From a bacterium (GTDB lineage Bacteria; Margulisbacteria; Marinamargulisbacteria; UBA817; JAQBTH01), in the NCBI GenBank assembly GCA_027623425.1, contig JAQBTH010000004.1:1-48655 (forward strand): 48,655 bases of DNA, given 5' to 3'. A program made the translations under genes and the position numbers. Below are positions 1 to 28,745 of this stretch, piece after piece (the stretch's first letter is position 1; each line of letters starts with the position of its first letter). The notes under the pieces were generated by a model that saw nothing but the letters and a program-made list of their open reading frames with translations, had not been told where the DNA came from and did not search any database.

Positions 1-1281
1 AAATACAAAGCGGCCGTTAAAGATATTAAAGCCCGACATAAAAAAGGCCAACCCGTGCTTGTTGGCAGTATTACGATTGAAACCTCTGAGCTAATGTCGA
101 AACTGTTAATGAAGGAATCGATTCCCCATAAGGTGCTAAATGCGAAATACCATGAAAAAGAAGCCGAAATCATTGCTGACGCCGGTCAAAAGCACGCCGT
201 TACCATTGCAACAAACATGGCGGGTCGTGGAACAGACATTAAATTAGGCGACGGCGTTATAGAATTGGGTGGGCTGTATGTTTTGGGTACAGAGCGACAT
301 GAATCTCGCCGTATCGACAATCAGTTACGTGGACGCGCTGGTCGGCAAGGGGACCCAGGAGAGTCTAAGTTTTATGTGGCACTAGACGATGACTTGATGC
401 GACTATTTGGGTCTGACCGAATCGCAAGAGTAATGGAAACACTAGGAATACCGGACGATACCCCAATTGAACACGGCCTTATTTCAAAATCAATTGAACG
501 CGCCCAGAAAAAAGTAGAGCAATATCATTTTAGCACTCGAAAACATATTCTGGAGTACGACAACGTTATGGATAAACAGCGCAATACTGTTTACAAATTA
601 CGTCGCGAAATTGTTGCAAAAGAAGGTTTAATTGAGAAACTACATGATTATATAGATGATATCGTTGTAAATGGAGTCGCAACATTTGGCATTACCTTTA
701 CTGATAAAGATAGTCGCGCCATCAAAGAAGAGTTTGCAACGCAACTTAAAGATGTGTTTCCCATCTCCAATATGGATGAATTAATTGCAAAAGTGCAACC
801 TGCACACGATTCTCAGTCTGAACTTGCAAGTCTTTTCAAATCGTTTCTATCTAAGCGTCTTTCTGAGCACCCACCACAAATATATGATGAAGTGATAAAG
901 TCCATTTTATTACGCAATTTAGACTCAAAGTGGATGGACCATTTGCATAATATGGACGTACTTCGAGAAGGCATCGGCTTACGTGCTTATGGGCAAAAGA
1001 ATCCTCTGATGGAATATAAGATGGAAGGGTTTGATATGTTTCGCGACCTACTCTTCACCGTATTCGAAGAAAGTATTAAAGTGATTTCCCGTGTGGAAGT
1101 GGTGGCTCAGGATCAACCTACCTTGGAAAAGAACTCCCCGCTAAAAGTGGCAAAATATTCGAGTGCAAAAGGTACGCAAAAAGAAGAAAACCCTGTTCAA
1201 CATTCAGATAAAGTGGGCAGGAATGATCCGTGCCCATGTGGGTCTGGCAAAAAACATAAAAAGTGTTGTGGTGCTGCCTAA
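1..1281 (+). CDS. secA: Protein translocase ATPase SecA, C-terminal part (5' truncated by window)
   Basis: SecA is the ATPase motor that pushes preproteins through the SecYEG channel in the inner membrane. The frame is open from base 1, so the start lies outside the window; 426 residues are visible, about half of a usual SecA. The second nucleotide-binding domain is recognisable from [13 protein letters not shown] and [17 protein letters not shown]. The helical scaffold and wing region follows ([28 protein letters not shown]). The protein ends in a SEC-C zinc-binding tail, [19 protein letters not shown], with the CxCx8CC pattern. The stop TAA overlaps the ATG of prfB by one base, so the two genes are probably translationally coupled. 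Identification is secure; only the N-terminal half is unseen. Confidence 0.97.
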
Positions 1282-2394
1282 TGAATATTGAAAAACAACA
1301 ACTTGCGAAGTATAAAAAGTCCTTAATTGGGCTCGGAGACTATCTTTGACCTTGCTCAAAAGCGAGAACGGATACGCCAGTTAGAAGTTGAGATTGAACA
1401 CCCAAATTTTTGGGACGACAATGTAGTCGCGCAGAAATCTCTTAGCCAACTTAATCGTGAGCGCTCTGTTATTGAGAAATACGATGAGCTACTTGCAGAG
1501 GTGGAAGACCTTGAGGTAATGGCAGACTTGCTTACTGAAGAGGACGCCAGTGACGCAGACATTACTGATTTTAATCTGAATCTAAAACGTGTGGGCGAGC
1601 ACGTTGATAACCTAGAAGTCAGCAGTTTATTGTCTGGAAAATATGATGATCATGATTGTATTTTTACGATCCAATCTGGTGCGGGTGGTACCGATGCGCA
1701 AGATTGGGCAGACATGCTGTTGCGCATGTTTGTGCGTTGGATGGAGCAAAATGACTACCACGCAGATGTCGTGGAATACTCTGCCGGAGAAGAAGCTGGG
1801 CTTAAGTCCGCCACAATTCACGTAAAAGGAGACTTCGCCTACGGGTATTTGAAACAAGAAATTGGCGTGCATCGTTTGGTGCGAATATCGCCATTTAATG
1901 CCAATGGAAAACGTCAGACCAGTTTTGCCGCAGTGGAGGTGATTCCGCAACTTGACCAAGACTATGCCGACATTGTTATTCCAACGGACGCGCTAAAGAT
2001 CGATACGTTTCGCGCCTCTGGTGCTGGTGGCCAACACGTCAATAAAACAGACTCTGCTGTTCGCATTACTCACCTACCCACGGGCTTAGTTGCGCAATCA
2101 CAGTCTAGTCGGTCTCAAGGCGCAAACAAAGACACGGCCATGACCATTCTCAAATCACGCCTGATTCAATTGATGGAGTCGCAACACAAAGAAAACCTGG
2201 CTGACATCAAGGGGGAAAGCAAAGATATCGCGTGGGGCAATCAAATTCGGTCTTACGTGTTTCATCCCTACAAAATGGTTAAAGACCACCGAACAGAGTA
2301 TGAAACTAGCAATGTGGATGCCGTGATGGATGGGGATCTTACGCCATTTATACACGCAGCGTTACGCCAAACGAAACCCGCAGCGTCACACTAA
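1281..2394 (+). CDS. prfB: Peptide chain release factor 2, made through a programmed +1 frameshift
   Basis: RF2 recognises UGA and UAA stop codons and triggers peptide release on the ribosome. The gene starts at ATG 1281, overlapping the secA stop. It reads 22 codons ([20 protein letters not shown], then Y-L) to an in-frame TGA at 1347-1349, then continues in the +1 frame from GAC 1348 as DLAQKRERIRQLEVEIEHP. The joined product is 370 residues, close to the usual RF2 length. The GGQ peptidyl-hydrolysis motif (SGAGGQHVNKTDSAVRITH) and the SPF codon-recognition tripeptide (VRISPFNANGKR) are both present. Known RF2 genes use the same CTT TGA C slip site to autoregulate on RF2 level. A start inside the downstream frame (1327) would lose the conserved N-terminus and is not favoured. 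Confidence 0.95.
1335..1350 (+). promoter_or_regulatory. prfB programmed +1 frameshift site (TAT CTT TGA C)
   Basis: A Shine-Dalgarno-like GGAG (1335-1338) lies 5 nt before CTT (1344-1346), which is followed by the in-frame stop TGA and a C. In known prfB genes the tRNA on CUU slips to UUU when RF2 is scarce, so translation continues in the +1 frame. The downstream frame continues the RF2 family sequence exactly at this point. The GGAG-to-CTT spacing is slightly longer than the 3 nt in the E. coli site. Confidence 0.93.
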
Positions 2395-2435
2395 ATTTCA
2401 ACGCATTAATTTGGATGCTGAAATCGATGGTATTG

Positions 2436-2444
2436 TGCTACACT
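2436..2444 (+). promoter_or_regulatory. Extended -10 promoter element of the DUF5693 gene
   Basis: TGC directly precedes TACACT (2439-2444), an extended -10 arrangement. The ATG at 2452 follows after 7 nt and there is no Shine-Dalgarno sequence, so the transcript would start at or next to the start codon. No good -35 is visible at 16-18 bp. Confidence 0.45.
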
Positions 2445-2451
2445 ATTGTGC

Positions 2452-4440
2452 ATGAAACTTCCACATAAGAAGGAACTAAAATGGCTCGTTATAGGGATTA
2501 TTGCCGCCTCAATATTGGTGGGCCTAAACCTAGCGGCAAAACGCTACCAGTTCGAATCTCAGAACGACACCGTTCAAATGGCAATGTCTCTCACAGAAGT
2601 ATCTCGGCTTTCCAAGCTTGGTGGCTTAGACCAAACAAAGCTACTCAGTCGGTTAAGCCAAGAAGCTAATATTAGCGCCATTGTGGTAGATGAAGGCACG
2701 CTTGCTAGTTACGAAGCCGAGGGCAAACTCACGATCCTAAAGGGATCAGACATTATGAACATGCTACGCGTTGGAAAAGTGTACCGCACCATTCTAACGC
2801 GACTTGCATCAAAGACCCAGGTAAAACCAGACCGCATCTATGTCGTAGTTGATGAATTTAATTTATATGAACAAATAAAAGGATACCTAATAGCAACCCT
2901 AGAAACAGGCAGCGTAAAAGAACGCGGCTGGAATATTTTAGAGATCCTATCTGATGAACGCACATTGATGAATGTGGGGTTGGGTTTTGCACCCGAAACC
3001 GCAAAAGAACTTAGTGGGCATGGGTTGACGATGATTCCGCGCTTTCAGAATGGTTCTCGTCGAAACGATGCCTTAATCAAGCTAAAATTTAAAAATCTGA
3101 GCCAATTATCAGATGTTAAGGTGGTCTTATTCGAAGAGGAATCGGTTTTGGGATATCCGTCACACTTGGAAACCGTATCGAGCGAACTTAAGAGCGCTGG
3201 AATCGCAATTGGATTTGAAGAATTCTCAAAACAGCTTGGTATATATTCCCTCACTAAAATTACGCCTCGCAACGTGGTAAGAGTGCATTCAATAACACCT
3301 GAAACCATGAGTGAAATGACTGAAAGCGTGGCTATCACACGGTATTTACGAAGTGCCAAAGAACGGGGCGCACGGCTACTATTATTTCAACCCCTCATCA
3401 ATCTTCACAGTGGAAACGAAATCGTTGACTACAATATTTCAATGGCAAAAGACATATCCACTTATCTATCTGATTTTGGATTTAAAATCGGGTCTATTGG
3501 TGAGTTACCAACCAAGCAATTTGTGCCCGTTAGCGCGTGGGAATCATTCATAATGAGCGCAGGAATTCTGGTGTGGTTATTATTATTTCTACAACTTGCC
3601 TTTCCAATTCGTAAAAATCTGGCCTTGGTTTTATCGGTGATCTTTATTTTTGGTTTTGCCATACTTTCCGGACTTGGAAGCTTAACCGTTTGGAATCGCA
3701 TCATGGCCTTGTTGGCAGCGTGTGTATTTCCGACTTATGCGATTATTAGTTTATTTCCATCTGGTTCACAAAAGAGTCTTGCCTTAAAAAATCGATTTAG
3801 AAAGGCACATTTCTACATACTAAGTACTGTTGGCATCACCTTGGTGGGGGCCATCTATGTCGTCGGTTTCATGGTCAGCATTCCCTTTTTGATGGGCATC
3901 AACCAATTCTTCGGGGTTAAAATTAGCTTCCTATTTCCTGTTGTGGCCGTGGGGCTGTATTTCTATTTGCGACCGAATCGAATTCCTGCGTTGTACTTCG
4001 TGATTAAGCGCTTATTTACTAGCCCACTAAGTATAGGCGCCCTACTGGCCTCCTTAGTATCCCTTATTTTTGTTGTGGTTTATATTTTGCGTAGCGGCAA
4101 TTACCTCAATATTCCGTTTATCGAAACATGGATGCGCAATACCTTAGAATCCTTATTATTTGTAAGGCCTCGGACTAAAGAGTTTTTAATCGGAATACCT
4201 CTTCTCATGGTGGGGTATATGTTTGTGGATAGTAAAATTTCAAGGGAATGGGTATGGTTTTTTAATGCCCTGGGCGCCGTTGCTTTAATTTCAATCCTCA
4301 ATTCTTTTTGCCATGTGCATACACCACTCATTATATCGTTGTACCGTAGTGTTATTGGCGTTGTGTTTGGGTTTCTTTTTGCCTGGCTTTATATTGCTGT
4401 TTTTGCAGGTATAAAGCTACTATTTCGCCGACTTGCCTAA
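2452..4440 (+). CDS. DUF5693-type multi-pass membrane protein
   Basis: Residues 1-30 contain one membrane anchor after a basic start. A soluble part of about 330 residues follows, with DUF5693-like features (ISAIVVDEGTLASYEAEGKL near the start, AIGFEEFSKQLG further on). The C-terminal half has about nine hydrophobic segments ending in a basic tail. Family members of this size are often found near polysaccharide pyruvyl transferase genes, but none is seen here and the function is not known. I chose ATG 2452 over the TTG 6 nt upstream because an extended -10 sits just before it. The stop overlaps the rnc start (TAATG), so the two are likely co-expressed. Confidence 0.75.
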   Translation: MKLPHKKELKWLVIGIIAASILVGLNLAAKRYQFESQNDTVQMAMSLTEVSRLSKLGGLDQTKLLSRLSQEANISAIVVDEGTLASYEAEGKLTILKGSDIMNMLRVGKVYRTILTRLASKTQVKPDRIYVVVDEFNLYEQIKGYLIATLETGSVKERGWNILEILSDERTLMNVGLGFAPETAKELSGHGLTMIPRFQNGSRRNDALIKLKFKNLSQLSDVKVVLFEEESVLGYPSHLETVSSELKSAGIAIGFEEFSKQLGIYSLTKITPRNVVRVHSITPETMSEMTESVAITRYLRSAKERGARLLLFQPLINLHSGNEIVDYNISMAKDISTYLSDFGFKIGSIGELPTKQFVPVSAWESFIMSAGILVWLLLFLQLAFPIRKNLALVLSVIFIFGFAILSGLGSLTVWNRIMALLAACVFPTYAIISLFPSGSQKSLALKNRFRKAHFYILSTVGITLVGAIYVVGFMVSIPFLMGINQFFGVKISFLFPVVAVGLYFYLRPNRIPALYFVIKRLFTSPLSIGALLASLVSLIFVVVYILRSGNYLNIPFIETWMRNTLESLLFVRPRTKEFLIGIPLLMVGYMFVDSKISREWVWFFNALGAVALISILNSFCHVHTPLIISLYRSVIGVVFGFLFAWLYIAVFAGIKLLFRRLA

Positions 4441-5150: not shown

Positions 5151-6244
5151 ACTCTAACGCGTTTTACTCGTGAACCCAGTATGCAGGTAACCTGTCGTAG
5201 GTTCATATTCATACTTTTTGCAAACGTGTCCTGGGAAATCTGCGACTCATTTTTAGGGCCAAAAAAAACAACGGTTTGCCCAGGAATGGCCGGCGCATTT
5301 AAGGGTATTTTTGCATAACACACATCCATTGCAACCCTGCCGACTAAAGGATATAGTTCGCCACCTATCTCGACGAATGCATCTTGGTAGTGCGTTGATA
5401 GCCCATCGGCGTATCCCATTTCAATTACGGCTATTCGACAAGGCTGATCTGCCCGATACTCCCCTGAGTAACCGATGGATTCACCCGTATCTAAATTGCA
5501 AATATCAAGAATTGTAGTTCGTAACTGGCAGGCATTGTTAAACAGCCCCTTCCCAATTCGCATGGAAGTAAATTGAGATTGATCTACTGAAAGTGCACCT
5601 TGGGAATTGGCGACGTGGGTTCGTACATGCTTAGGTAACGCATCGGCAAAATCGCGTAATAGCGCTACAAACTCTCGTACGTGTTCTTGAGTCTCGCTTC
5701 CTTGTTCATTTTTATCTAGTTCCACGTTAGGTAAATGGGTAAAGACATCACTTACTTGGCATGACCTAGCCCCGCTGGCAGCATTTACTAGCGCTGACGC
5801 ATCACGTTTAATGCTCGACTTACGTCCGAACCAATTCATGCCTGTATTAAAAAATAACGCTATTGGCATGCTCCGTTTTGCTGCCGAACAAGCGGCATCG
5901 AAATGTATTAATGGTTCTGCGTTTGCAAAGGTGGGGATGATTCGACTCGCCATGACCTCATTATAGTCACTCTCATCGGGCTCTCTAAGTAATAGAATCG
6001 TAATATCTGAATTTAGCTCCCTAATATCACGCCCTTCTGCAACTGAAAAAACAGCCACTATCGACACCTTTGTTGAGATAAGCGCGGGCATAATAGTTTG
6101 AATACCCAGTCCATAGGCATTTGCCTTTATGACTGCCATTAATTGGCCATTTGGTTGAATGGCTTGATACGCACGAATATTGGCTTCAATTTGATCAACA
6201 TGAATCCATATTTGTGGGCCATTTTTATCTTTAAGGTGAGGCAT
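5147..6244 (-). CDS. alr: Alanine racemase
   Basis: Alr is a PLP enzyme that interconverts L- and D-alanine for peptidoglycan. The PLP lysine is K40 in AVIKANAYGLG, 40 residues from the proposed start. The C-terminal barrel carries EMGYADGLSTHY and GRVAMDVCYAKI, close to the usual GYADG and GRVSMD motifs. The product is 365 residues, normal for the family. A TTG 36 nt upstream (6280) is also in frame. I prefer ATG 6244 because a promoter-like pair, TTGTAT and TAGAAT with 17 bp spacing, ends 7 nt before it, and the extra N-terminus would be encoded by that promoter. The gene reads away from the CofG-like gene and converges on rnc. Confidence 0.93.
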   Translation of the reverse strand: MPHLKDKNGPQIWIHVDQIEANIRAYQAIQPNGQLMAVIKANAYGLGIQTIMPALISTKVSIVAVFSVAEGRDIRELNSDITILLLREPDESDYNEVMASRIIPTFANAEPLIHFDAACSAAKRSMPIALFFNTGMNWFGRKSSIKRDASALVNAASGARSCQVSDVFTHLPNVELDKNEQGSETQEHVREFVALLRDFADALPKHVRTHVANSQGALSVDQSQFTSMRIGKGLFNNACQLRTTILDICNLDTGESIGYSGEYRADQPCRIAVIEMGYADGLSTHYQDAFVEIGGELYPLVGRVAMDVCYAKIPLNAPAIPGQTVVFFGPKNESQISQDTFAKSMNMNLRQVTCILGSRVKRVRV

Positions 6245-6251
6245 CGCTACT

Positions 6252-6280
6252 ATTCTATCCGTCAATTTTTTCTCATACAA
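6252..6280 (-). promoter_or_regulatory. Predicted alr promoter (TTGTAT-17-TAGAAT)
   Basis: On the minus strand, TTGTAT (6280-6275) and TAGAAT (6257-6252) are separated by 17 bp. The alr ATG begins 7 nt after the -10, suggesting a leaderless transcript. It lies back to back with the promoter of the divergent CofG-like gene; the two -35 boxes are about 10 bp apart. Confidence 0.5.
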
Positions 6281-6289
6281 GCCAAAAAT

Positions 6290-6317
6290 TTGGGATTTTC
6301 TCCATTCGTGCTATACT
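6290..6317 (+). promoter_or_regulatory. Predicted promoter of the CofG-like gene (TTGGGA-16-TATACT)
   Basis: TTGGGA (6290-6295) and TATACT (6312-6317) are 16 bp apart, and TGC directly precedes the -10, giving an extended -10. A leader of about 45 nt would follow before the likely GTG start. Confidence 0.55.
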
Positions 6318-6367
6318 ATCCGAATATTTTTCAGCATTTTAACATTCTTATTGAGCGGGTGGTTCGT

Positions 6368-7462
6368 GTGGTAGCAGCAAATACAATTGGCAATAAATCG
6401 GAAGAGGAAAGTGACGACATTGATGTCGTGGCTGAGTCTGATCCAAAAACGATAACATACTCGTTGAGTTCTCAGTGCGTTATAACGCGTCGATGCCGTA
6501 ACAAGTGTCCTTATTGCGCTTTTAATCGTCGTGATTCATTGTGTGTTCCTTACTCAACTATTCGGGAAGCAAAAGCGATTCGCGAAGCAGGTGCACGTGA
6601 AATCATCTATGTTGCGGGTGAACGCCCTGATAAATACTCGGATATTCGAGCAACGTTAGACTTATGGGGATTTAATTCTTATATAGAATATTTATACACG
6701 ATTGCAGAACTTGGATTTTTAGAAGGATTAATTCCTGTCATCGAAGTTGGCTTCTTAAGCCCTCTTGAAATGAAAAAAATGCACGAAATTTGCGGATTAT
6801 TTAAAATCATGTTGGACAGCGTGGATGCCAAGCATTTTGAAAAGATTTATGGGCATAGCCCTGGTAAGCAAATCGAAGTGCGACTTAAAAACCTTGAGTG
6901 GTCTGGACGATTAGGCTTTCCTACCGTTACTGGCATCATGGTGGGCATTGGTGAAACGCAATACCACAGAAAGGCAGCCTTGCGAGAAATTGCTGCTGTT
7001 CACAATGAATTTGGTACCATCCATGAATTATCAATTCAAAACTTCATTCCTCAAATAGGGACCCCATTTAAAGACCATTCTGCAACGGATCACAAAACCA
7101 TATTAAGCACTGTGGAAATGGCCCGGGAATTAATGCCAGATGTCATGGTAACGATTCCGCCTCATCACAATACCAACTGGAATGACTTTATAAAAGCTGG
7201 TGTGCGTGATTTTGGGTCTATTCCGATTGATAAAAACCCAACTGTTCCGTTCCACCCTGCCTTCGACTTTGAGGAGTTTAAAGGAACAGTGGAAAAAGCT
7301 GGCTATAAACTACACCAACGTTTGCCGCTTAGCTATTCCTTCATTAAAAATGGGAAATATTCTAAGAAACTCGGCCAAGTGTTCGATAACTATAAATATA
7401 AAATCAAAAAAATGGAGCAGGAACGCCTGCGTGATGACAAGATGGAAGCGATAGATGCGTAA
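6368..7462 (+). CDS. CofG-like radical SAM protein (F0/deazaflavin synthase subunit family)
   Basis: The radical SAM Cx3Cx2C motif is in RRCRNKCPYCAF (C43, C47, C50 from the GTG at 6368). Downstream segments match the CofG family: YVAGERPDKYSD, RLGFPTVTGIMVGIGE, HELSIQNFIPQIGTPF and the VTIPPHHN region. CofG works with CofH to make F0, the F420 chromophore, from tyrosine and 5-amino-6-ribitylaminouracil. No cofH or other F420 gene is in the window. The usual glycine-rich stretch after the third helix is replaced by VIEVGFLS, so the substrate may differ. The frame extends upstream to 6143, but that part is antisense to alr and precedes the promoter. GTG 6368 fits best (GCGGG about 8 nt upstream), though GTG 6359 cannot be excluded. 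Family assignment is good; the exact reaction is uncertain. Confidence 0.8.
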   Translation: MVAANTIGNKSEEESDDIDVVAESDPKTITYSLSSQCVITRRCRNKCPYCAFNRRDSLCVPYSTIREAKAIREAGAREIIYVAGERPDKYSDIRATLDLWGFNSYIEYLYTIAELGFLEGLIPVIEVGFLSPLEMKKMHEICGLFKIMLDSVDAKHFEKIYGHSPGKQIEVRLKNLEWSGRLGFPTVTGIMVGIGETQYHRKAALREIAAVHNEFGTIHELSIQNFIPQIGTPFKDHSATDHKTILSTVEMARELMPDVMVTIPPHHNTNWNDFIKAGVRDFGSIPIDKNPTVPFHPAFDFEEFKGTVEKAGYKLHQRLPLSYSFIKNGKYSKKLGQVFDNYKYKIKKMEQERLRDDKMEAIDA

Positions 7463-22679: not shown

Positions 22680-23648
22680 TTACCATAGTTTTGTTAGCGC
22701 TGTAAATAGATCTAAATTCAAATACTCGTTAGGGTGAACAGCCCGTGTCCAACGTCGAATCTCATAGTGCACATGGGGGCCAGTTGTGATTCCTGTTTCC
22801 CCCACTTTGCCTATGATTTGGCCTTTCGTCACTGTGCGACCCGGATTTACCATTATCTCTGATAAGTGGGCATATAAACTACGGTACCCATATTCATGGT
22901 TGATAATGATCAGCCACCCATAACCACCACCCCACCCTGCAAACTCAATAACGCCATCTCCTGTCGCTTTTACCGGTGCGCCAATCCAGGCTGGAATGTC
23001 GATGCCTTTGTGAAAAAGACGGTTTCCAGACTTGGGATGGATACGCCAGCCAAAACGTGAACGAATCGTGCCATACACTGGCCAAATTGAAGGTGTTTTC
23101 TGAAACCGGTCTTTGTACTGCGCTAACTGACGGTCTAAACTGCGAAGTGTGGAATCTGTTTGGATGATTTGAACCTGAATAAAATCAAGTTGTTGGCCCA
23201 ATCGATCTGTGACTTCCGGTTCACCCTTTCCAATAGTTGAAAAGTTCTGACTAAATAAATTCCCTTTTGATTTACGGGAATAATTGGTGGTGCGTCGTTT
23301 TTGCCTACCGATGATTTTGCTCATGTCTTCTTCACGATTTAACAAGTCTTTCAGCGTATTGTGAATGGCGTCTACGCGCTCTTCAAACCGTTCGATTTGT
23401 TTGTCTTGCTCTGCTGCTTTTGATTTTAAGGTTGAATACGCATCTTTATCCAAAGTGCTTTTCGCACCATAGCTAACACCTGCCACGCCAAACAATGTGG
23501 CAAAGATTAAAAGGAACACCCCCGTAACTAATTTACGTTTGGAAACCCGTATCTGGTACGTGGTCCTTCCACTTGGAGGCACAACCATGAAGGCAAAATA
23601 ATCCTTCTTAGTGAGTGTAAAATCGTCGTCTTGCTTAGCGTTTGCCAT
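22680..23648 (-). CDS. Membrane-anchored M23 (LytM) peptidoglycan endopeptidase
   Basis: M23 peptidases are zinc enzymes that cut peptide cross-links in the cell wall. The order is a short cytoplasmic N-terminus, one membrane helix (residues 37-57), a coiled-coil region (about 70-190), then the LytM domain. Zinc and catalytic motifs are complete: HKGIDIPAWIGAPV for HxxxD, YAHL, and the HxH in TGPHVHYEIRR. The protein has 322 residues. On the minus strand TATAAT (23662-23657) ends 8 nt before the ATG, another possible leaderless start. It heads the operon with bactofilin, which probably places it at sites of wall shaping. Confidence 0.95.
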   Translation of the reverse strand: MANAKQDDDFTLTKKDYFAFMVVPPSGRTTYQIRVSKRKLVTGVFLLIFATLFGVAGVSYGAKSTLDKDAYSTLKSKAAEQDKQIERFEERVDAIHNTLKDLLNREEDMSKIIGRQKRRTTNYSRKSKGNLFSQNFSTIGKGEPEVTDRLGQQLDFIQVQIIQTDSTLRSLDRQLAQYKDRFQKTPSIWPVYGTIRSRFGWRIHPKSGNRLFHKGIDIPAWIGAPVKATGDGVIEFAGWGGGYGWLIIINHEYGYRSLYAHLSEIMVNPGRTVTKGQIIGKVGETGITTGPHVHYEIRRWTRAVHPNEYLNLDLFTALTKLW

Positions 23649-23952: not shown

Positions 23953-23991
23953 TGGTCGGGATGAGAACGACTTTTTTGTCGAGTGTGAAAG
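23953..23991. repeat. att-like direct repeat copy 1 (15-bp tRNA-Pro 3' end plus 24-bp arm)
   Basis: The 15-bp core TGGTCGGGATGAGAA is followed by CGACTTTTTTGTCGAG and TGTGAAAG. It is identical to copy 2 except T23986 versus C24673. The arm contains a short inverted repeat, CGAC-T6-GTCG. The left flank (TTTTCA) differs from the other copies, as expected for host DNA. Confidence 0.9.
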
Positions 23992-24037
23992 CAAAAATGA
24001 TGATGGGGCATTAGCCTCATTAACTTCGTAATAAATA

Positions 24038-24067
24038 TTGCATATATAAATTATTTTGACGTATACT
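24038..24067 (+). promoter_or_regulatory. Predicted promoter of the ORF6N gene (TTGCAT-18-TATACT)
   Basis: TTGCAT (24038-24043) and TATACT (24062-24067) are 18 bp apart. The ATG at 24074 begins 6 nt after the -10, so the transcript is probably leaderless. A 7-bp hairpin (ATGGGGC-ATTA-GCCTCAT, 24003-24020, one G-U pair) lies just upstream. Confidence 0.5.
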
Positions 24068-24073
24068 TATGAT

Positions 24074-24604
24074 ATGACTGCAAACTCACTCACTACTGGC
24101 GTTGCTTTTGAAACAGTTCGAAGTAAAATTCATCTAGTTCGTGGCAAGAAAGTTATGCTTGATCGAGATTTAGCTGATTTATATCAAGTGAAGTCTATTG
24201 CCCTTCGGCAACAAGTCAAACGGAATATAGAGAGTTTTCCAGATGATTTTATGTTTCAATTGAACGAAAATGAAGTAGAAATTTTGCTATCACAAAATGT
24301 GATACCTTCTAAAAAGAGCTTGGGCGGTGCGATTCCAATGGTATTCACTGAGCAAGGCGTGGCAATGCTATCAAGTGTATTGAAAAGTCAAAGGGCACGT
24401 CAGGTAAATATTATGATTATGAGAACATTTGTGAAACTAAGGGAAATGCTATCAACTCATAAAGAACTCCAAGAAAAGATTGGGCAACTTGAACGAAAAT
24501 ATGATCAACAGTTCAAAGTTGTATTTGAAGCAATCAAGCATATTATTTATACAGAGGAAAACCCGAAAAGGATTGGTTTTTTAACTGAGAAATATTCAAA
24601 ATAA
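24074..24604 (+). CDS. ORF6N (KilA-N-like) domain DNA-binding protein
   Basis: Residues 5-100 match the ORF6N domain (KIHLVRGKKVMLDRDLADLY, ALRQQVKRNIESFPDDFMFQ, VFTEQGVAMLSSVLKS). This domain is common in phage antirepressors and in stand-alone genes on mobile elements. A coiled-coil stretch (REMLSTHKELQEKIGQLERK) and a short C-terminal tail (KRIGFLTEKYSK) follow. The likely product is 176 residues from ATG 24074; a TTG at 24056 is also in frame but overlaps the promoter. It is the only gene between the first two tRNA-derived repeats. The role in the element is unknown; control of mobility or of a phage is possible. Confidence 0.88.
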   Translation: MTANSLTTGVAFETVRSKIHLVRGKKVMLDRDLADLYQVKSIALRQQVKRNIESFPDDFMFQLNENEVEILLSQNVIPSKKSLGGAIPMVFTEQGVAMLSSVLKSQRARQVNIMIMRTFVKLREMLSTHKELQEKIGQLERKYDQQFKVVFEAIKHIIYTEENPKRIGFLTEKYSK

Positions 24605-24639
24605 GAGATTTGGCCTAAATGGGCAACAATTTTAGGTTT

Positions 24640-24678
24640 TGGTCGGGATGAGAACGACTTTTTTGTCGAGTGCGAAAG
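24640..24678. repeat. att-like direct repeat copy 2
   Basis: It has the same 15-bp tRNA-Pro 3'-end core and 24-bp arm as copy 1, with one mismatch. Its left flank ends in TTT like the copy in the tRNA, which supports the view that this is a junction between two integrated elements of the same type. Confidence 0.9.
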
Positions 24679-24706
24679 ACTTATTCTGCCACAGGCAGCG
24701 TCTTTC
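24674..24706. other. Hairpin at the edge of element B
   Basis: GAAAGAC (24674-24680) pairs with GTCTTTC (24700-24706), and CTGCC (24686-24690) pairs with GGCAG (24694-24698) inside it, leaving a 3-nt loop. It overlaps the last bases of repeat copy 2 and lies 26 nt past the ATPase stop. There is no T-run on either strand, so it is not a standard terminator. It could be a recombinase arm site or an RNA 3' end. Confidence 0.45.
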
Positions 24707-24731
24707 TGCTTCTCCCAAAAAGTTGAACTTC

Positions 24732-26534
24732 CTAATGATTGGCTTGGCGATTATTACTCAAACTTACTGCTGAATCGTCAAGGTTGTTGCCATTATGAAT
24801 TTCTTGAATTCCAATAGTATCCGCCAAAACACTCGGTTTAGTTGAATTTAGGATTGATTCTATTTCGTCGAAAATCACACTAAAACCGGCAAAGTCTTCT
24901 TTCGTATCTTTTTCGCAAATCCAATCGCAAAGTGCTGTCTTCTGATTATTAATCAATGCCCATTCCTGAATATCCATATGCTTGGCATCTGGGATTGTTC
25001 TTTTCAGTGCTTCCGCGCCAACATTATTTGAAGCTTCCAAAATTAAATTATCCGAGAATAAATTTTCAATCCCCCTTTTAACAGAATTATTTGGATTAGC
25101 TGGGATGCATCTTTTGTGTATTATTTTATAATCATCATTAGACTTCTGTGTATCACAATCAAATAACAAAACAAGTGGATGATGCAAGAATTCTATAATT
25201 TCATTTCTGTTAGTCCAATATTTTACTAGGTTTCCCGCTCCATTTTTTTCTGTTAAATCAAATCTATCTAAAATAAGTTTCCAATTCGGGTAATGGTCAG
25301 CGGCCTTACGAATGTAATTAACATCTTGTATGCCCTCAACAAAAAGGTTGGGCTTTGTAGACTTAGATAAAACAATCAACTCATCCTGAGCCTTTTCAAG
25401 CTCACAAATTCGAGCTTTTTGATCTTGCATTTCGGCGTAAAAATGTTCATTCGCTACTTTCAATTCATCATATTCATACTTTTGAACTCTCATTATTCGA
25501 TTTTTAGAATCGTTCACTCTAAATACCTCATAAAACGAGGCATATTCTGGCGCAAGACCTATAGTAGCGGGATTATGCGTTGTCATGATTACTACGATGC
25601 CTTTGGATACGAAATATTTGTTCAGCACTTTGAAAAGCGCGTTAGTTAATGATGGATTCAAAACGGCGTCATATTCATCCAACAGCAATACTTTTTTAGT
25701 ATTTGAGTCAGCCTCAGATAGTGATGCAAAAACCAGTGAGATGATTGCCTTTTCTCCGTCTGACAATTCTCCCAGCTTCCTTGGCTGATCCAAAAGCAAC
25801 TTTCCATTTGAATCTATCTCAAATAGTCCAGGTTGCTTATTAAGTTCAAAATTGACAATTTCAAAATCGGCCTCAAAGCGATAGGAAAACCCTAGTTCCT
25901 CAAACAATTTATTGAGCTGCTCCCAGGGTGGAACTTCTAAAATACTACGTTCATACTTATTCCCAGTTTTTCCAGCTTCTGCATTTGCGGCATATTCTCG
26001 CACTAAATAAGTTGAAAAAATACCCCAAATTCTATTGGAAAATATATCATCTCTTGCCCAGATAAAATCCGCAGGAATTGCGTTTATAAATTCGTCTCTT
26101 TCGAGACTTTCCCATCTACTGTCAAATTGCTCGATCAAATGTGACTTTAATTTTTCGCAAGAACTTCTAAACTCTTCATTATCCGGATGGTCTAACCTTA
26201 GTAGCTTATTATTATTGTATTTTTCCCAAGCTGCGTCCCAATCTGCTTTGACCGATTCAATACCCATTCTGGGAACTCTTAGAATACTAATATTGTCTTT
26301 AAATGAGCGCTTTTCGATATAAATACGATCCAACATTTCACCGTCTAAAGAAACTGTGGCATTAATTTTCTTATTTTTATCTCGTTCGACTATCTGCGAT
26401 ATAATTTCGATTAGCTGTGATTTACCACTACCATTGACTCCAGACAGGATTATTAGACCTCCTTGTAATTCAGCCTTAAAACCTTCTACAAACGATTTAA
26501 ATCGCTCATTAAGTATTATGGATAGTTTTTTCAT
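24732..26534 (-). CDS. OLD-like protein: AAA/ABC ATPase fused to TOPRIM nuclease domain
   Basis: The ATPase has Walker A GVNGSGKS (residues 32-39), signature LSDGEK (257-262), Walker B KVLLLDEYD (281-289) and switch His in MTTHNPATIG (H320). A TOPRIM-like part follows with E400 in NLFVEGIQDV and DxD at 459-461 in LLFDCDTQ. This order is that of OLD-family nucleases, several of which act in phage defence alone or with a partner. No gajB, reverse transcriptase or other partner gene is adjacent, so this would be a single-gene type. At 600 residues it has normal length. It is the sole gene of element B beside tRNA-Pro. Phage defence is inference from family and location. Confidence 0.82.
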   Translation of the reverse strand: MKKLSIILNERFKSFVEGFKAELQGGLIILSGVNGSGKSQLIEIISQIVERDKNKKINATVSLDGEMLDRIYIEKRSFKDNISILRVPRMGIESVKADWDAAWEKYNNNKLLRLDHPDNEEFRSSCEKLKSHLIEQFDSRWESLERDEFINAIPADFIWARDDIFSNRIWGIFSTYLVREYAANAEAGKTGNKYERSILEVPPWEQLNKLFEELGFSYRFEADFEIVNFELNKQPGLFEIDSNGKLLLDQPRKLGELSDGEKAIISLVFASLSEADSNTKKVLLLDEYDAVLNPSLTNALFKVLNKYFVSKGIVVIMTTHNPATIGLAPEYASFYEVFRVNDSKNRIMRVQKYEYDELKVANEHFYAEMQDQKARICELEKAQDELIVLSKSTKPNLFVEGIQDVNYIRKAADHYPNWKLILDRFDLTEKNGAGNLVKYWTNRNEIIEFLHHPLVLLFDCDTQKSNDDYKIIHKRCIPANPNNSVKRGIENLFSDNLILEASNNVGAEALKRTIPDAKHMDIQEWALINNQKTALCDWICEKDTKEDFAGFSVIFDEIESILNSTKPSVLADTIGIQEIHNGNNLDDSAVSLSNNRQANH

Positions 26535-26618
26535 TACTGATTACCTGCCTAACTCGATAAACTGAAAAATTTGTTGGGAGAGGTTTTAATTTTGGGAAAA
26601 TCAACTGCGGTTATCTTT

Positions 26619-26696
26619 TGGTCGGGATGAGAAGATTTGAACTTCCGACCTCCAGTCCCCCAGACTGGCGCGCTAACCAGGCTGCGCTACACCCCG
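26619..26696 (-). tRNA. tRNA-Pro (anticodon GGG), CCA encoded
   Basis: Read on the minus strand, the 78-nt gene folds as a full cloverleaf. The acceptor CGGGGTG pairs with CATCCCG (one G-U), the anticodon stem is CCAGT/ACTGG with loop CTGGGGG, and the T arm is GGAAG-TTCAAAT-CTTCT. The 3' CCA is encoded. The last 15 nt recur at 24640 and 23953, marking this gene as an integration site. The gene itself is intact. Confidence 0.95.
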
Positions 26697-26813: not shown

Positions 26814-28745
26814 CTAAGCGGCGCCGGCTGCGGCTGGTGAGAGTGCTGCTGGTGGCGCGGCATCATCTGTCTTTTTAGAGGCGCGCTTTTTAGCAGGTTT
26901 CTTCTTTGGTGCTTGGCCAATCAGTTCTAAGAATTCATCACGCTCAATGACTTCGCGTTCCAAAATAATTTTAGACACCTTCTTAAGCATGTCCATATTC
27001 TTCTTCAACAATGCCGTGGTATCTGTATAGGCCTCGTCGATAATACGATGCACTTCATCATCAATGTCTTTCGCTGTTGCTTCGGAATAATCTTGAGAAT
27101 GGTCTGTATATTGTTTACCTAAAAATACTGAACCTGATTGTTTCCCGAATTTTCTGGCGCCTAATTTTTCACTCATTCCAAAGCTACACACAAACCCCTT
27201 TGCTAAGGCTGTGGCACGCTCTATGTCGTTACTTGCGCCCGTTGTGATCTCATTAAATATCAACTGTTCCGCCACACGGCCACCTAATAACACCCGAATA
27301 TTATTTAAAATCTCTGTATTGGATTGCAAATACTTATCTTCTATCGGTACCTGCATGGTGTAGCCCAAGGCCATTCCACGGGGTAAAATAGAGATTTTAT
27401 GGACGGGGTCTGTATCGGGTAGGTAGGCCGCGACAAGTGCATGCCCCACTTCATGGTAGGCAATAATAGACTTCTCTTTATCACTCATAATGCGGCTTTT
27501 GCGCTGAGGCCCTGCCATCACACGTTCTATGGATTCTTCAATTTCATCTTGCCCCACAATCGTTTTGCTACGACGTGCCGCCAGTAAGGCCGCTTCGTTT
27601 ATCAGGTTCGCCAAATCGGCACCTGTGAAACCAGGTGTGCTACGCGCAATAACGCCCAAATCAACTTTTTTACTTATCTTACGAGTCTTAGCGTGAATAT
27701 CTAAAATGGCACGGCGGCCATCGATGTCTGGCTTGTCTACCATAATTTGGCGATCAAAACGACCGGGCCTAAGCAACGCTGGGTCAAGGATATCGGGGCG
27801 GTTGGTGGCCGCCAATACGATAACCGTTTGATGATCTTCGAACCCATCCATCTCAACTAACATCTGGTTTAGTGTCTGTTCGCGTTCGTCATGACCACCA
27901 CCTAAACCGGCGCCTCGGTGTCGACCAACTGCATCAATTTCATCTACAAATATAATGGCTGGAGCATTCTTTTTAGCTTGGCTAAACAGATCTCGCACTC
28001 GCGAGGCACCAACGCCGACGAACATCTCAACAAAATCTGAGCCTGATATATTAAAGAATGGCACATCGGCTTCACCGGCAACAGCTTTGGCCAATAATGT
28101 TTTTCCTGTGCCTGGAGGCCCTACTAGCAAAGCCCCTTTAGGTATTTTTGCCCCTATCTTAAGGAACTTAGCGGGTTTCTTAAGGTATTCCACCATTTCT
28201 CGAAGTTCTTCGATGGCTTCGTCACAACCGGCCACATCTTTGAAAGTGATGCGATCTTTGCCGGCGGGTTTTATGTATGCCTTTGCCTTGGATTTACCAA
28301 ACGACATGGCTTGGCTATTCGCGCCCTGTGCCGGCCTTAAAATGAAGAACCATAGTCCGCCAATTAATAGGAATGGGAAAACGGCTTGTAAAAAGAGCGA
28401 CCAGAACCAGTTGGAGTCGGCGGGATTCACCTTTATGGTGACGTCGTGTTCTTTTAATTGTGAGATTAAGTTTGGATTCTCAATATAATATGTTTTAAAG
28501 GATTCACCGTCTTTGGTTTTGCCTAGGATTGTTTGATCCGAACTGCGAATTGTGATTTCACTAATGGCGCCTTGGTTTAGCTGCTTTAAAAAATCGGAAT
28601 AGTCCATTGCGTCAGGCGCTTTTTCACCATTCATGCCTGCAGTGACGATGGAAATAAGAATAAAGGTAAATAAGATATACCATAATGCGTTTCGCATGTT
28701 GCGATTGCGGTTAGGGGGGGTATTGTTTGGTTCTTTTTTGCTCAT
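26814..28745 (-). CDS. ftsH: ATP-dependent zinc metalloprotease FtsH
   Basis: FtsH is a hexameric membrane protease that degrades unassembled membrane proteins and short-lived regulators. The protein has 643 residues, normal length. Two N-terminal membrane helices flank a periplasmic domain. The AAA module follows with [23 protein letters not shown] and the second region of homology ([20 protein letters not shown]). The zinc motif is HEVGH ([12 protein letters not shown]). The C-terminal tail is Lys- and Ala-rich. It follows pyrR by 53 bp on the same strand. Confidence 0.97.

What the first reader, a model, noticed from the sequence alone, without database searches (positions are those of the whole stretch)
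23953..26696. Two single-gene elements integrated in tandem at the 3' end of tRNA-Pro, without an integrase
The last 15 nt of tRNA-Pro(GGG), including CCA, occur again at 24640 and 23953. The two outer copies share the same 24-bp extension (39 bp in all, one mismatch), whereas the tRNA copy goes on into the T arm. On the other side, copy 2 and the tRNA copy share TTT, but copy 1 does not. That asymmetry is exactly what two insertions of elements with the same attachment arms would leave. Each element holds just one gene: an ORF6N protein (687-bp element) and an OLD-like ATPase/TOPRIM protein (1979-bp element). Neither codes for a recombinase, so they look like minimal cargo units moved by an enzyme in trans. 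Seen: repeats, flanks, genes. Known: tRNA 3' ends are common att sites for tyrosine recombinases. Inferred: mobility.
Basis: partly seen in the sequence, partly recalled or inferred. Interest (0 to 1): 0.82.

Follow-up and report, generated by a model that had tools for sequence, protein, structure and literature searches.

The report
Single-gene islands stacked behind tRNA-Pro
Two foreign, single-gene DNA units, both candidate virus-defence genes, sit in tandem behind a proline tRNA gene, each marked off by a copy of the tRNA's end; neither carries the enzyme needed to insert it, and one of the genes belongs to a family that is flanked in the same way in many unrelated bacteria.

Summary
The last 15 nt of tRNA-Pro(GGG) recur at 24640 and 23953. 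The two outer copies share a further 24 bp (39 bp, one mismatch) that occurs nowhere else in the 1.86-Mb assembly. The repeats enclose one ORF6N gene and one AAA ATPase/TOPRIM-like gene. Both units have lower GC (34%, 36%) than any other window of their size in the contig (mean 44%). A same-order genome keeps ftsH/tRNA-Pro/M23 without either gene or the repeats. No recombinase lies in the units, and none of the genome's five tyrosine-recombinase matches is linked to this core. Best reading: tandem site-specific integration of recombinase-free cargo units. This is known architecture (cis-mobilizable elements; Dehalococcoides ssrA islands), here reduced to one gene per unit. The trans enzyme is inferred, not found. 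Beyond the claim, solitary ORF6N genes across bacteria are flanked by long direct repeats about five times as often (odds) as neighbouring genes (20/104 against 9/206). Several repeats duplicate the 3' end of a conserved gene (ychF, ruvX, trmH, hsdM), with mostly synonymous differences between copies. The tRNA-Pro case may therefore be one instance of a wider single-gene mobility.

The parts
26619..26696 (-). tRNA-Pro(GGG), the target gene; its last 15 nt (26619-26633) are the core
   Evidence: ARAGORN, Rfam RF00005 61 bits
26616..26633 (-). copy 3 of the core at the tRNA end (attL-like) with the shared AAA (TTT on +) of unit 2's arm
   Evidence: 18-nt exact match to copy 2
24679..26618 (.). 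unit 2 interior, GC 36.0%, no recombinase
24732..26534 (-). OLD-like AAA ATPase with TOPRIM-like C-terminus, 600 aa, same direction as the tRNA
   Evidence: PF13304 E 2.5e-11; OLD-like_TOPRIM E 0.015 below cut-off; PADLOC AriA, GajA, mad3 and RT-Toprim partial matches
24640..24678 (-). copy 2: core plus 24-bp arm (CTTTCGCACTCGACAAAAAAGTCG + TTCTCATCCCGACCA on the minus strand), junction of units 1 and 2
23992..24639 (.). unit 1 interior, GC 34.3%
24074..24604 (+). ORF6N-domain protein, 176 aa (PADLOC candidate PDC-S05), convergent with the tRNA
   Evidence: PF10543 E 3.7e-30; PDC-S05 E 3.8e-53
23953..23991 (-). copy 1: core plus 24-bp arm, outer (attR-like) boundary with the chromosome
26814..28745 (-). 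ftsH, conserved flank on the tRNA side
   Evidence: Pfam; synteny in G003
22680..23648 (-). M23-type peptidase gene, conserved flank on the far side
   Evidence: synteny in G003 contig C40

Best explanation
The 3' end of tRNA-Pro(GGG) is an attachment site that was used twice. Each incoming unit carried the joined site CTTTCRCACTCGACAAAAAAGTCG | TTCTCATCCCGACCA | AAA. Recombination in the 15-bp core rebuilt the tRNA end and pushed the old end outwards, leaving core+arm at each outer boundary. Each unit is a complete minimal cassette: one candidate defence gene (ORF6N, or an OLD-like ATPase/TOPRIM protein), short flanks, and no recombinase. Insertion therefore needed an enzyme supplied from outside the unit, most likely a tyrosine or serine integrase of another island, phage or plasmid that uses the same core. 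Shown: the repeats, their asymmetry, foreign composition, gene content, and absence from the syntenic locus of a same-order genome. Inferred: site-specific recombination as the joining step, and a trans-acting enzyme. Not shown: present-day mobility.
For: Both predicted shared segments are present: the 24-bp arm on one side of copies 1 and 2, and TTT on the other side of copies 2 and 3. The arm is found only at these two sites. The core ends exactly at the tRNA CCA. Both units have lower GC than any other stretch of equal size in the window. The units are compact, with at most about 85 bp between gene and repeat on any side and no decayed remnants. G003, of the same order but another family, keeps M23..tRNA-Pro-ftsH without the genes or repeats. 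There is a direct precedent: Dehalococcoides ssrA islands are tandem, bounded by a 20-bp ssrA repeat plus a 15-bp motif shared by repeats but not aligning with ssrA, and 15 of 31 lack the integration module (PMC3146451).
Against: No integrase in the assembly is linked to this core. The five PF00589 matches are two Xer-type genes (C108, C9), a fragment by tRNA-Arg (C93), and two phage-type integrases whose contigs end in tRNA-Ser- and tRNA-Asn-like sequence. The arm was not found in IMG/VR or species genomes by exact pattern. The only same-order comparison is distant and its site is not a clean empty site: a TRIC-like gene and remnants lie between tRNA and M23. No excision can be tested from an assembly.
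Confidence: 0.58

Rival explanations
1. Recombinase-independent insertion. ORF6N-type genes enter by homologous or homology-assisted illegitimate recombination (like the 'insertion with long target duplication' described for restriction-modification genes), duplicating the end of whatever gene they land behind. The tRNA-Pro case is one example of this.
For: Solitary ORF6N genes across phyla have flanking direct repeats in 20/104 cases against 9/206 control ORFs (Fisher p 5e-5), with a different target each time: ychF, ruvX, trmH, hsdM, a 548-aa gene, comF 5' end. Differences between copies are mostly synonymous, so the copies come from intact genes of different lineages, as homologous transfer would give. 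The RM precedent is described in PMC3031569.
Against: In the window two unrelated genes share the same 24-bp arm and the same core edge at the tRNA CCA. Independent illegitimate events would have to coincide there. The extra TTT shared by copies 2 and 3 would be chance.
Confidence: 0.22
2. Cis-mobilizable remnants. Two once-complete islands with the same integrase landed in tandem and each later lost everything but one gene, keeping its att sites.
For: Tandem accretion and integrase loss are the textbook route to such structures (PMC5704250; PMC3146451). The genome has another probable decayed island, with an integrase fragment beside tRNA-Arg on C93.
Against: Both units are tightly packed around a single intact gene, with no gene remnants and at most about 85 bp of spacer. 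Two independent deletions would each have had to stop exactly at one gene.
Confidence: 0.15
3. Assembly artefact or chance repeats.
For: The sequence is a fragmented draft assembly (119 contigs); tRNA ends are short and partly conserved.
Against: Exact 15-mers plus a unique 39-bp pair are far beyond chance. Both flanks are syntenic in G003 on one contig.
Confidence: 0.03

Closest known systems
Dehalococcoides ssrA-specific genomic islands (McMurdie et al. 2011, PMC3146451)
   Same: Tandem islands behind an RNA gene 3' end; each boundary is a copy of the RNA end plus a motif shared among repeats but not aligning with the RNA gene; 15 of 31 lack the integration module.
   Different: Those islands are larger (vcrABC islands about 12 kb), the target is ssrA, and neighbouring islands carry the serine integrase. 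Here the units hold one gene and no neighbouring integrase is seen.
CIMEs (cis-mobilizable elements) and tandem accretion (reviewed in PMC5704250)
   Same: attL/attR-like ends kept, no integration or transfer genes, tandem arrangement at one target.
   Different: CIMEs are defined as decayed ICEs/IMEs. These units show no sign of decay from a larger element and no partner element is next to them.
Insertion with long target duplication of restriction-modification genes (Nobusato et al. 2000, cited in PMC3031569)
   Same: One defence gene set flanked by direct repeats with no recombinase.
   Different: There the repeat is described as long and variable target DNA. Here the repeat is an RNA 3' end plus an arm shared by two unrelated genes.
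Tycheposons (description in PMC10872708)
   Same: tRNA-bounded cargo elements.
   Different: 4-200 kb with a tyrosine recombinase; the window units are 0.7 and 2.0 kb without one.

Membership tests
[quoted passage not shown]
   Core at 23953, 24640, 26619
Cis-mobilizable element (CIME) | no integration or transfer genes | tested here: met
   Single ORF per unit, no recombinase
Cis-mobilizable element (CIME) | derived by deletion from an ICE or IME | tested here: inconclusive
   No remnants in the units; no larger form found
Cis-mobilizable element (CIME) | can be excised by an integrase acting on its att sites | not testable with these tools
   Needs reads or an excision assay; no integrase with this core found
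Integron gene cassette | attC recombination site and an integron integrase | tested here: not met
   The shared site is a tRNA 3' end plus arm, not an attC. None of the 5 recombinase matches lies near it, although the matches were not typed as IntI specifically. The two genes face opposite ways relative to the site.
Tycheposon | tRNA-bounded element of 4-200 kb with tyrosine recombinase | tested here: not met
   0.7 and 2.0 kb, no recombinase
ORF6N / PDC-S05 candidate defence gene | match to ORF6N domain and PDC-S05 profile | tested here: met
   PF10543 E 3.7e-30; PDC-S05 E 3.8e-53
OLD-family nuclease | ABC-type ATPase followed by TOPRIM domain | tested here: inconclusive
   ATPase clear; TOPRIM below curated cut-off (PF20469 E 0.015); single-sequence fold useless, pLDDT 33

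The most novel reading that the evidence does not exclude
ORF6N genes, and perhaps a few other single defence-type genes, are a widespread class of one-gene, recombinase-free mobile units. They insert behind conserved genes (tRNA or protein) while carrying a replacement copy of that gene's 3' end, so the target stays intact; the window shows one such unit and a second cargo gene using the same site.
Probability: 0.3. Interest if true: 0.8.

Novelty: new variant of a known kind. Interest (0 to 1): 0.55.

Why it matters
If right, defence genes can spread one at a time, without their own recombinase, by borrowing an integrase or homologous recombination at the ends of conserved genes. That would help explain how isolated candidate defence genes become scattered outside recognisable islands. 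It also gives a simple search signature: one gene enclosed by two copies of a neighbour's 3' end.

Tried and rejected
Exact 33-nt and shorter core+arm patterns gave nothing in viral or species genomes. The OLD-like protein had no relative at E 1e-20 in 95 genomes, no confirmed relative in viral contigs, and only partial 27-30% matches in plasmids. The single-sequence structure prediction failed (mean pLDDT 32.8), so no fold search was run. Integrases on C62 and C109 were considered as helpers and set aside because their contigs end in tRNA-Ser- and tRNA-Asn-like sequence (my reading of the sequence, ARAGORN does not call these truncated ends). Integron cassettes were considered and rejected. 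Tandem ORF6N arrays (L113, L114, L115, L116, L118, L222, L226) were left out of the solitary-gene count because tandem duplication alone can produce their repeats. Repeats in L121, L137, L192, L195 and possibly L062 look like dispersed repeat families and are weak evidence, but they are still inside the 20/104 count.

Full report
WHAT IS THERE. The window is contig C30 of a 1.86-Mb, 119-contig genome estimated at 90% complete. tRNA-Pro(GGG) lies at 26696..26619 on the minus strand. Its last 15 nt occur three times, at 23953, 24640 and 26619 (plus-strand starts), with no other match in the window at up to 3 mismatches. In the genome the only other near match is the 3' end of tRNA-Pro(TGG) on C36, with one mismatch. 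Copies 1 and 2 continue identically for 24 bp beyond the core (39 bp, one T/C difference), and that extension exists nowhere else in the genome within 3 mismatches. On the other side copies 2 and 3 share TTT, and copy 1 has TCA.

CARGO. Unit 1 (687 bp start to start) holds an ORF6N protein at 24074-24604 (PF10543 E 3.7e-30), which is also the PADLOC single-gene candidate PDC-S05 (E 3.8e-53). Unit 2 (1979 bp) holds a 600-aa AAA_21-type ATPase at 24732-26534 (E 2.5e-11) with partial matches to defence ATPases (AriA, GajA, mad3). Its C-terminal third matches OLD-like TOPRIM only weakly (PF20469 E 0.015; PADLOC RT-Toprim E 3e-4), so 'OLD-like' is reasonable but not secured. No recombinase ORF lies in either unit. 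GC is 34.3% and 36.0%, below every other window of the same length in the contig, whose mean is 44.2%. Both units look foreign and are tightly packed.

SITE IN A RELATIVE. Only four other genomes of the order are held. One, G003, keeps the surrounding order (flhA, fliA, TatD, RsmI, bactofilin, M23, tRNA-Pro(GGG), ftsH) on one contig. Between its tRNA and M23 lie a TRIC-like membrane gene and remnants, with no ORF6N, no ATPase and no tRNA-end repeat. The units are therefore probably not ancestral to the locus, but this is a between-family comparison and not a clean empty site.

HOW THE REPEATS WOULD ARISE. Read along the tRNA, each unit begins AAA after the core and ends CTTTCRCACTCGACAAAAAAGTCG followed by the core. 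This is what two single-crossover insertions of circles with the same site would leave, and it explains both shared flanks. The arm contains CGAC-AAAAAA-GTCG, and GTCG-TTCTCATCC-CGAC spans the core; small inverted repeats of this sort are common at recombinase sites, but this is only suggestive. A published system has the same logic. Dehalococcoides islands behind ssrA are tandem and bounded by a 20-bp ssrA repeat. A 15-bp motif next to the repeat is shared among repeats but does not align with ssrA. Of 31 islands, 15 lack the integration module (PMC3146451). CIMEs and tandem accretion are the general concept (PMC5704250).

WHERE IS THE ENZYME? Five PF00589 matches exist in the genome. C108 (307 aa, in a housekeeping context) and C9 (cut by the contig end) look Xer-type. 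C93 has only a C-terminal fragment, near tRNA-Arg. C62 and C109 carry phage-type integrases, but their contigs end within tRNA-Ser-like and tRNA-Asn-like sequence respectively, so they appear to use other sites. The arm was not found in viral contigs or species genomes. Serine recombinases were not searched for in the genome. A helper is therefore inferred. It may lie in the missing 10% of the genome or in a phage or plasmid that is not held.

A WIDER PATTERN. The same genome has other ORF6N genes. One, on C93, is flanked by a 70-bp perfect direct repeat, though this resembles a dispersed repeat. Another, on C20, is flanked by a 28-bp perfect repeat that includes a ribosome-binding-site-like stretch and start codon. 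I therefore examined 54 ORF6N genes from this phylum and 84 from a scan of 84,980 species genomes. Counting only ORF6N genes with no second ORF6N gene nearby, 20 of 104 have a direct repeat of score 20 or more within 700 bp on both sides, against 9 of 206 other ORFs in the same loci (Fisher p 5e-5; controls). With a related, cruder method (30 loci per family) other accessory families gave Fic 2/28, AAA_21 0/25 and 23S-IVP 5/30. The ORF6N loci ranked best by profile score gave 4/28 by that method, so the size of the effect is moderate and depends on sampling.

WHAT IS DUPLICATED. In several cases the repeat is the 3' end of a conserved gene: ychF in L145 (44 bp, exact), a 548-aa gene in L131, ruvX in L133, trmH in L115 and hsdM in L177; L202 (rsmB-like) and L201 (a carB N-terminal half) duplicate stretches close to a gene's 3' end. 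Gene names here are my reading of the protein sequences, not database calls. Two cases (L184 comF-like, L109) duplicate a 5' end instead. In L145, L131, L133 and the window the ORF6N gene is convergent with the target. Differences between copies fall mainly at third codon positions (18 of 29, p 0.0014) and change the amino acid in only 9 of 25 altered codons, or 9 of 30 with L201. That fits units carrying a functional gene end from another lineage better than a fresh duplication decaying in place. Tandem ORF6N arrays behind trmH differ in number between two species of one genus (three units on G034 C107, two on G046 C212), although in G034 the array is now separated from trmH.

WEIGHING. In the window, two unrelated genes share arm, core edge and orientation of the site, which favours site-specific recombination. 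In the wider ORF6N set every target differs, which does not need a single integrase and leaves recombinase-independent insertion open as a rival. The two need not be exclusive: an ORF6N unit may use whatever route its current flanks allow.

LIMITS. The assembly is a fragmented draft; no reads were available; no congeners are held; controls were other ORFs in the same loci and are not matched for horizontal origin; some counted repeats are dispersed repeat families (L121, L137, L192, L195, probably L062). The claim of present mobility is untested.

Noticed in passing
L062 (G000 contig C93:10000-20000), 3947-5040: Second ORF6N gene enclosed by a 70-bp perfect direct repeat, next to tRNA-Arg(TCT), whose last 10 nt plus AAAA recur 135 bp downstream; an integrase C-terminal fragment and an AlbA_2-like gene follow. 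Probably a decayed island.
   Followed up: partly
L226 (Elusimicrobia, DMES01000058.1), 900-4210: Four ORF6N genes in tandem at about 850-bp spacing, separated by repeats of about 200 bp that contain a long imperfect inverted repeat; looks cassette-like.
   Followed up: no
L113 (G034 C107) and L115 (G046 C212): Tandem ORF6N arrays, each unit carrying a slightly different copy of the trmH-like gene's 3' end; three units in one species and two in a congener.
   Followed up: partly
L063 (G000 C62) end and L064 (G000 C109) end: Phage-type integrase contigs that end inside tRNA-Ser-like and tRNA-Asn-like sequence; assembly breaks at probable att sites.
   Followed up: partly
L043 (G000 C36) end; G005 contigs C53 and C69: Several contigs end in or just after tRNA-Pro genes in this genome and a relative, suggesting repeats or strain variation at tRNA-Pro.
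   Followed up: no
L113, L114, L116, L118 ORF6N proteins: Neighbouring ORF6N paralogues keep near-identical N- and C-termini but differ strongly in the middle of the domain, between the FPxDFMFQL and FTEQGVAML motifs; possible diversification of a recognition segment.
   Followed up: no
L241 (G043 C108), 1264-2020: A 23S-IVP (four-helix bundle) gene enclosed by a direct repeat of 168 bp; this family may share the ORF6N pattern.
   Followed up: no
L117 (G015 C13), 5280-6530: Two tandem ORF6N genes end 9 bp from, and convergent with, the 3' end of tRNA-Val(GAC), but without a detectable copy of the tRNA end on the far side.
   Followed up: partly
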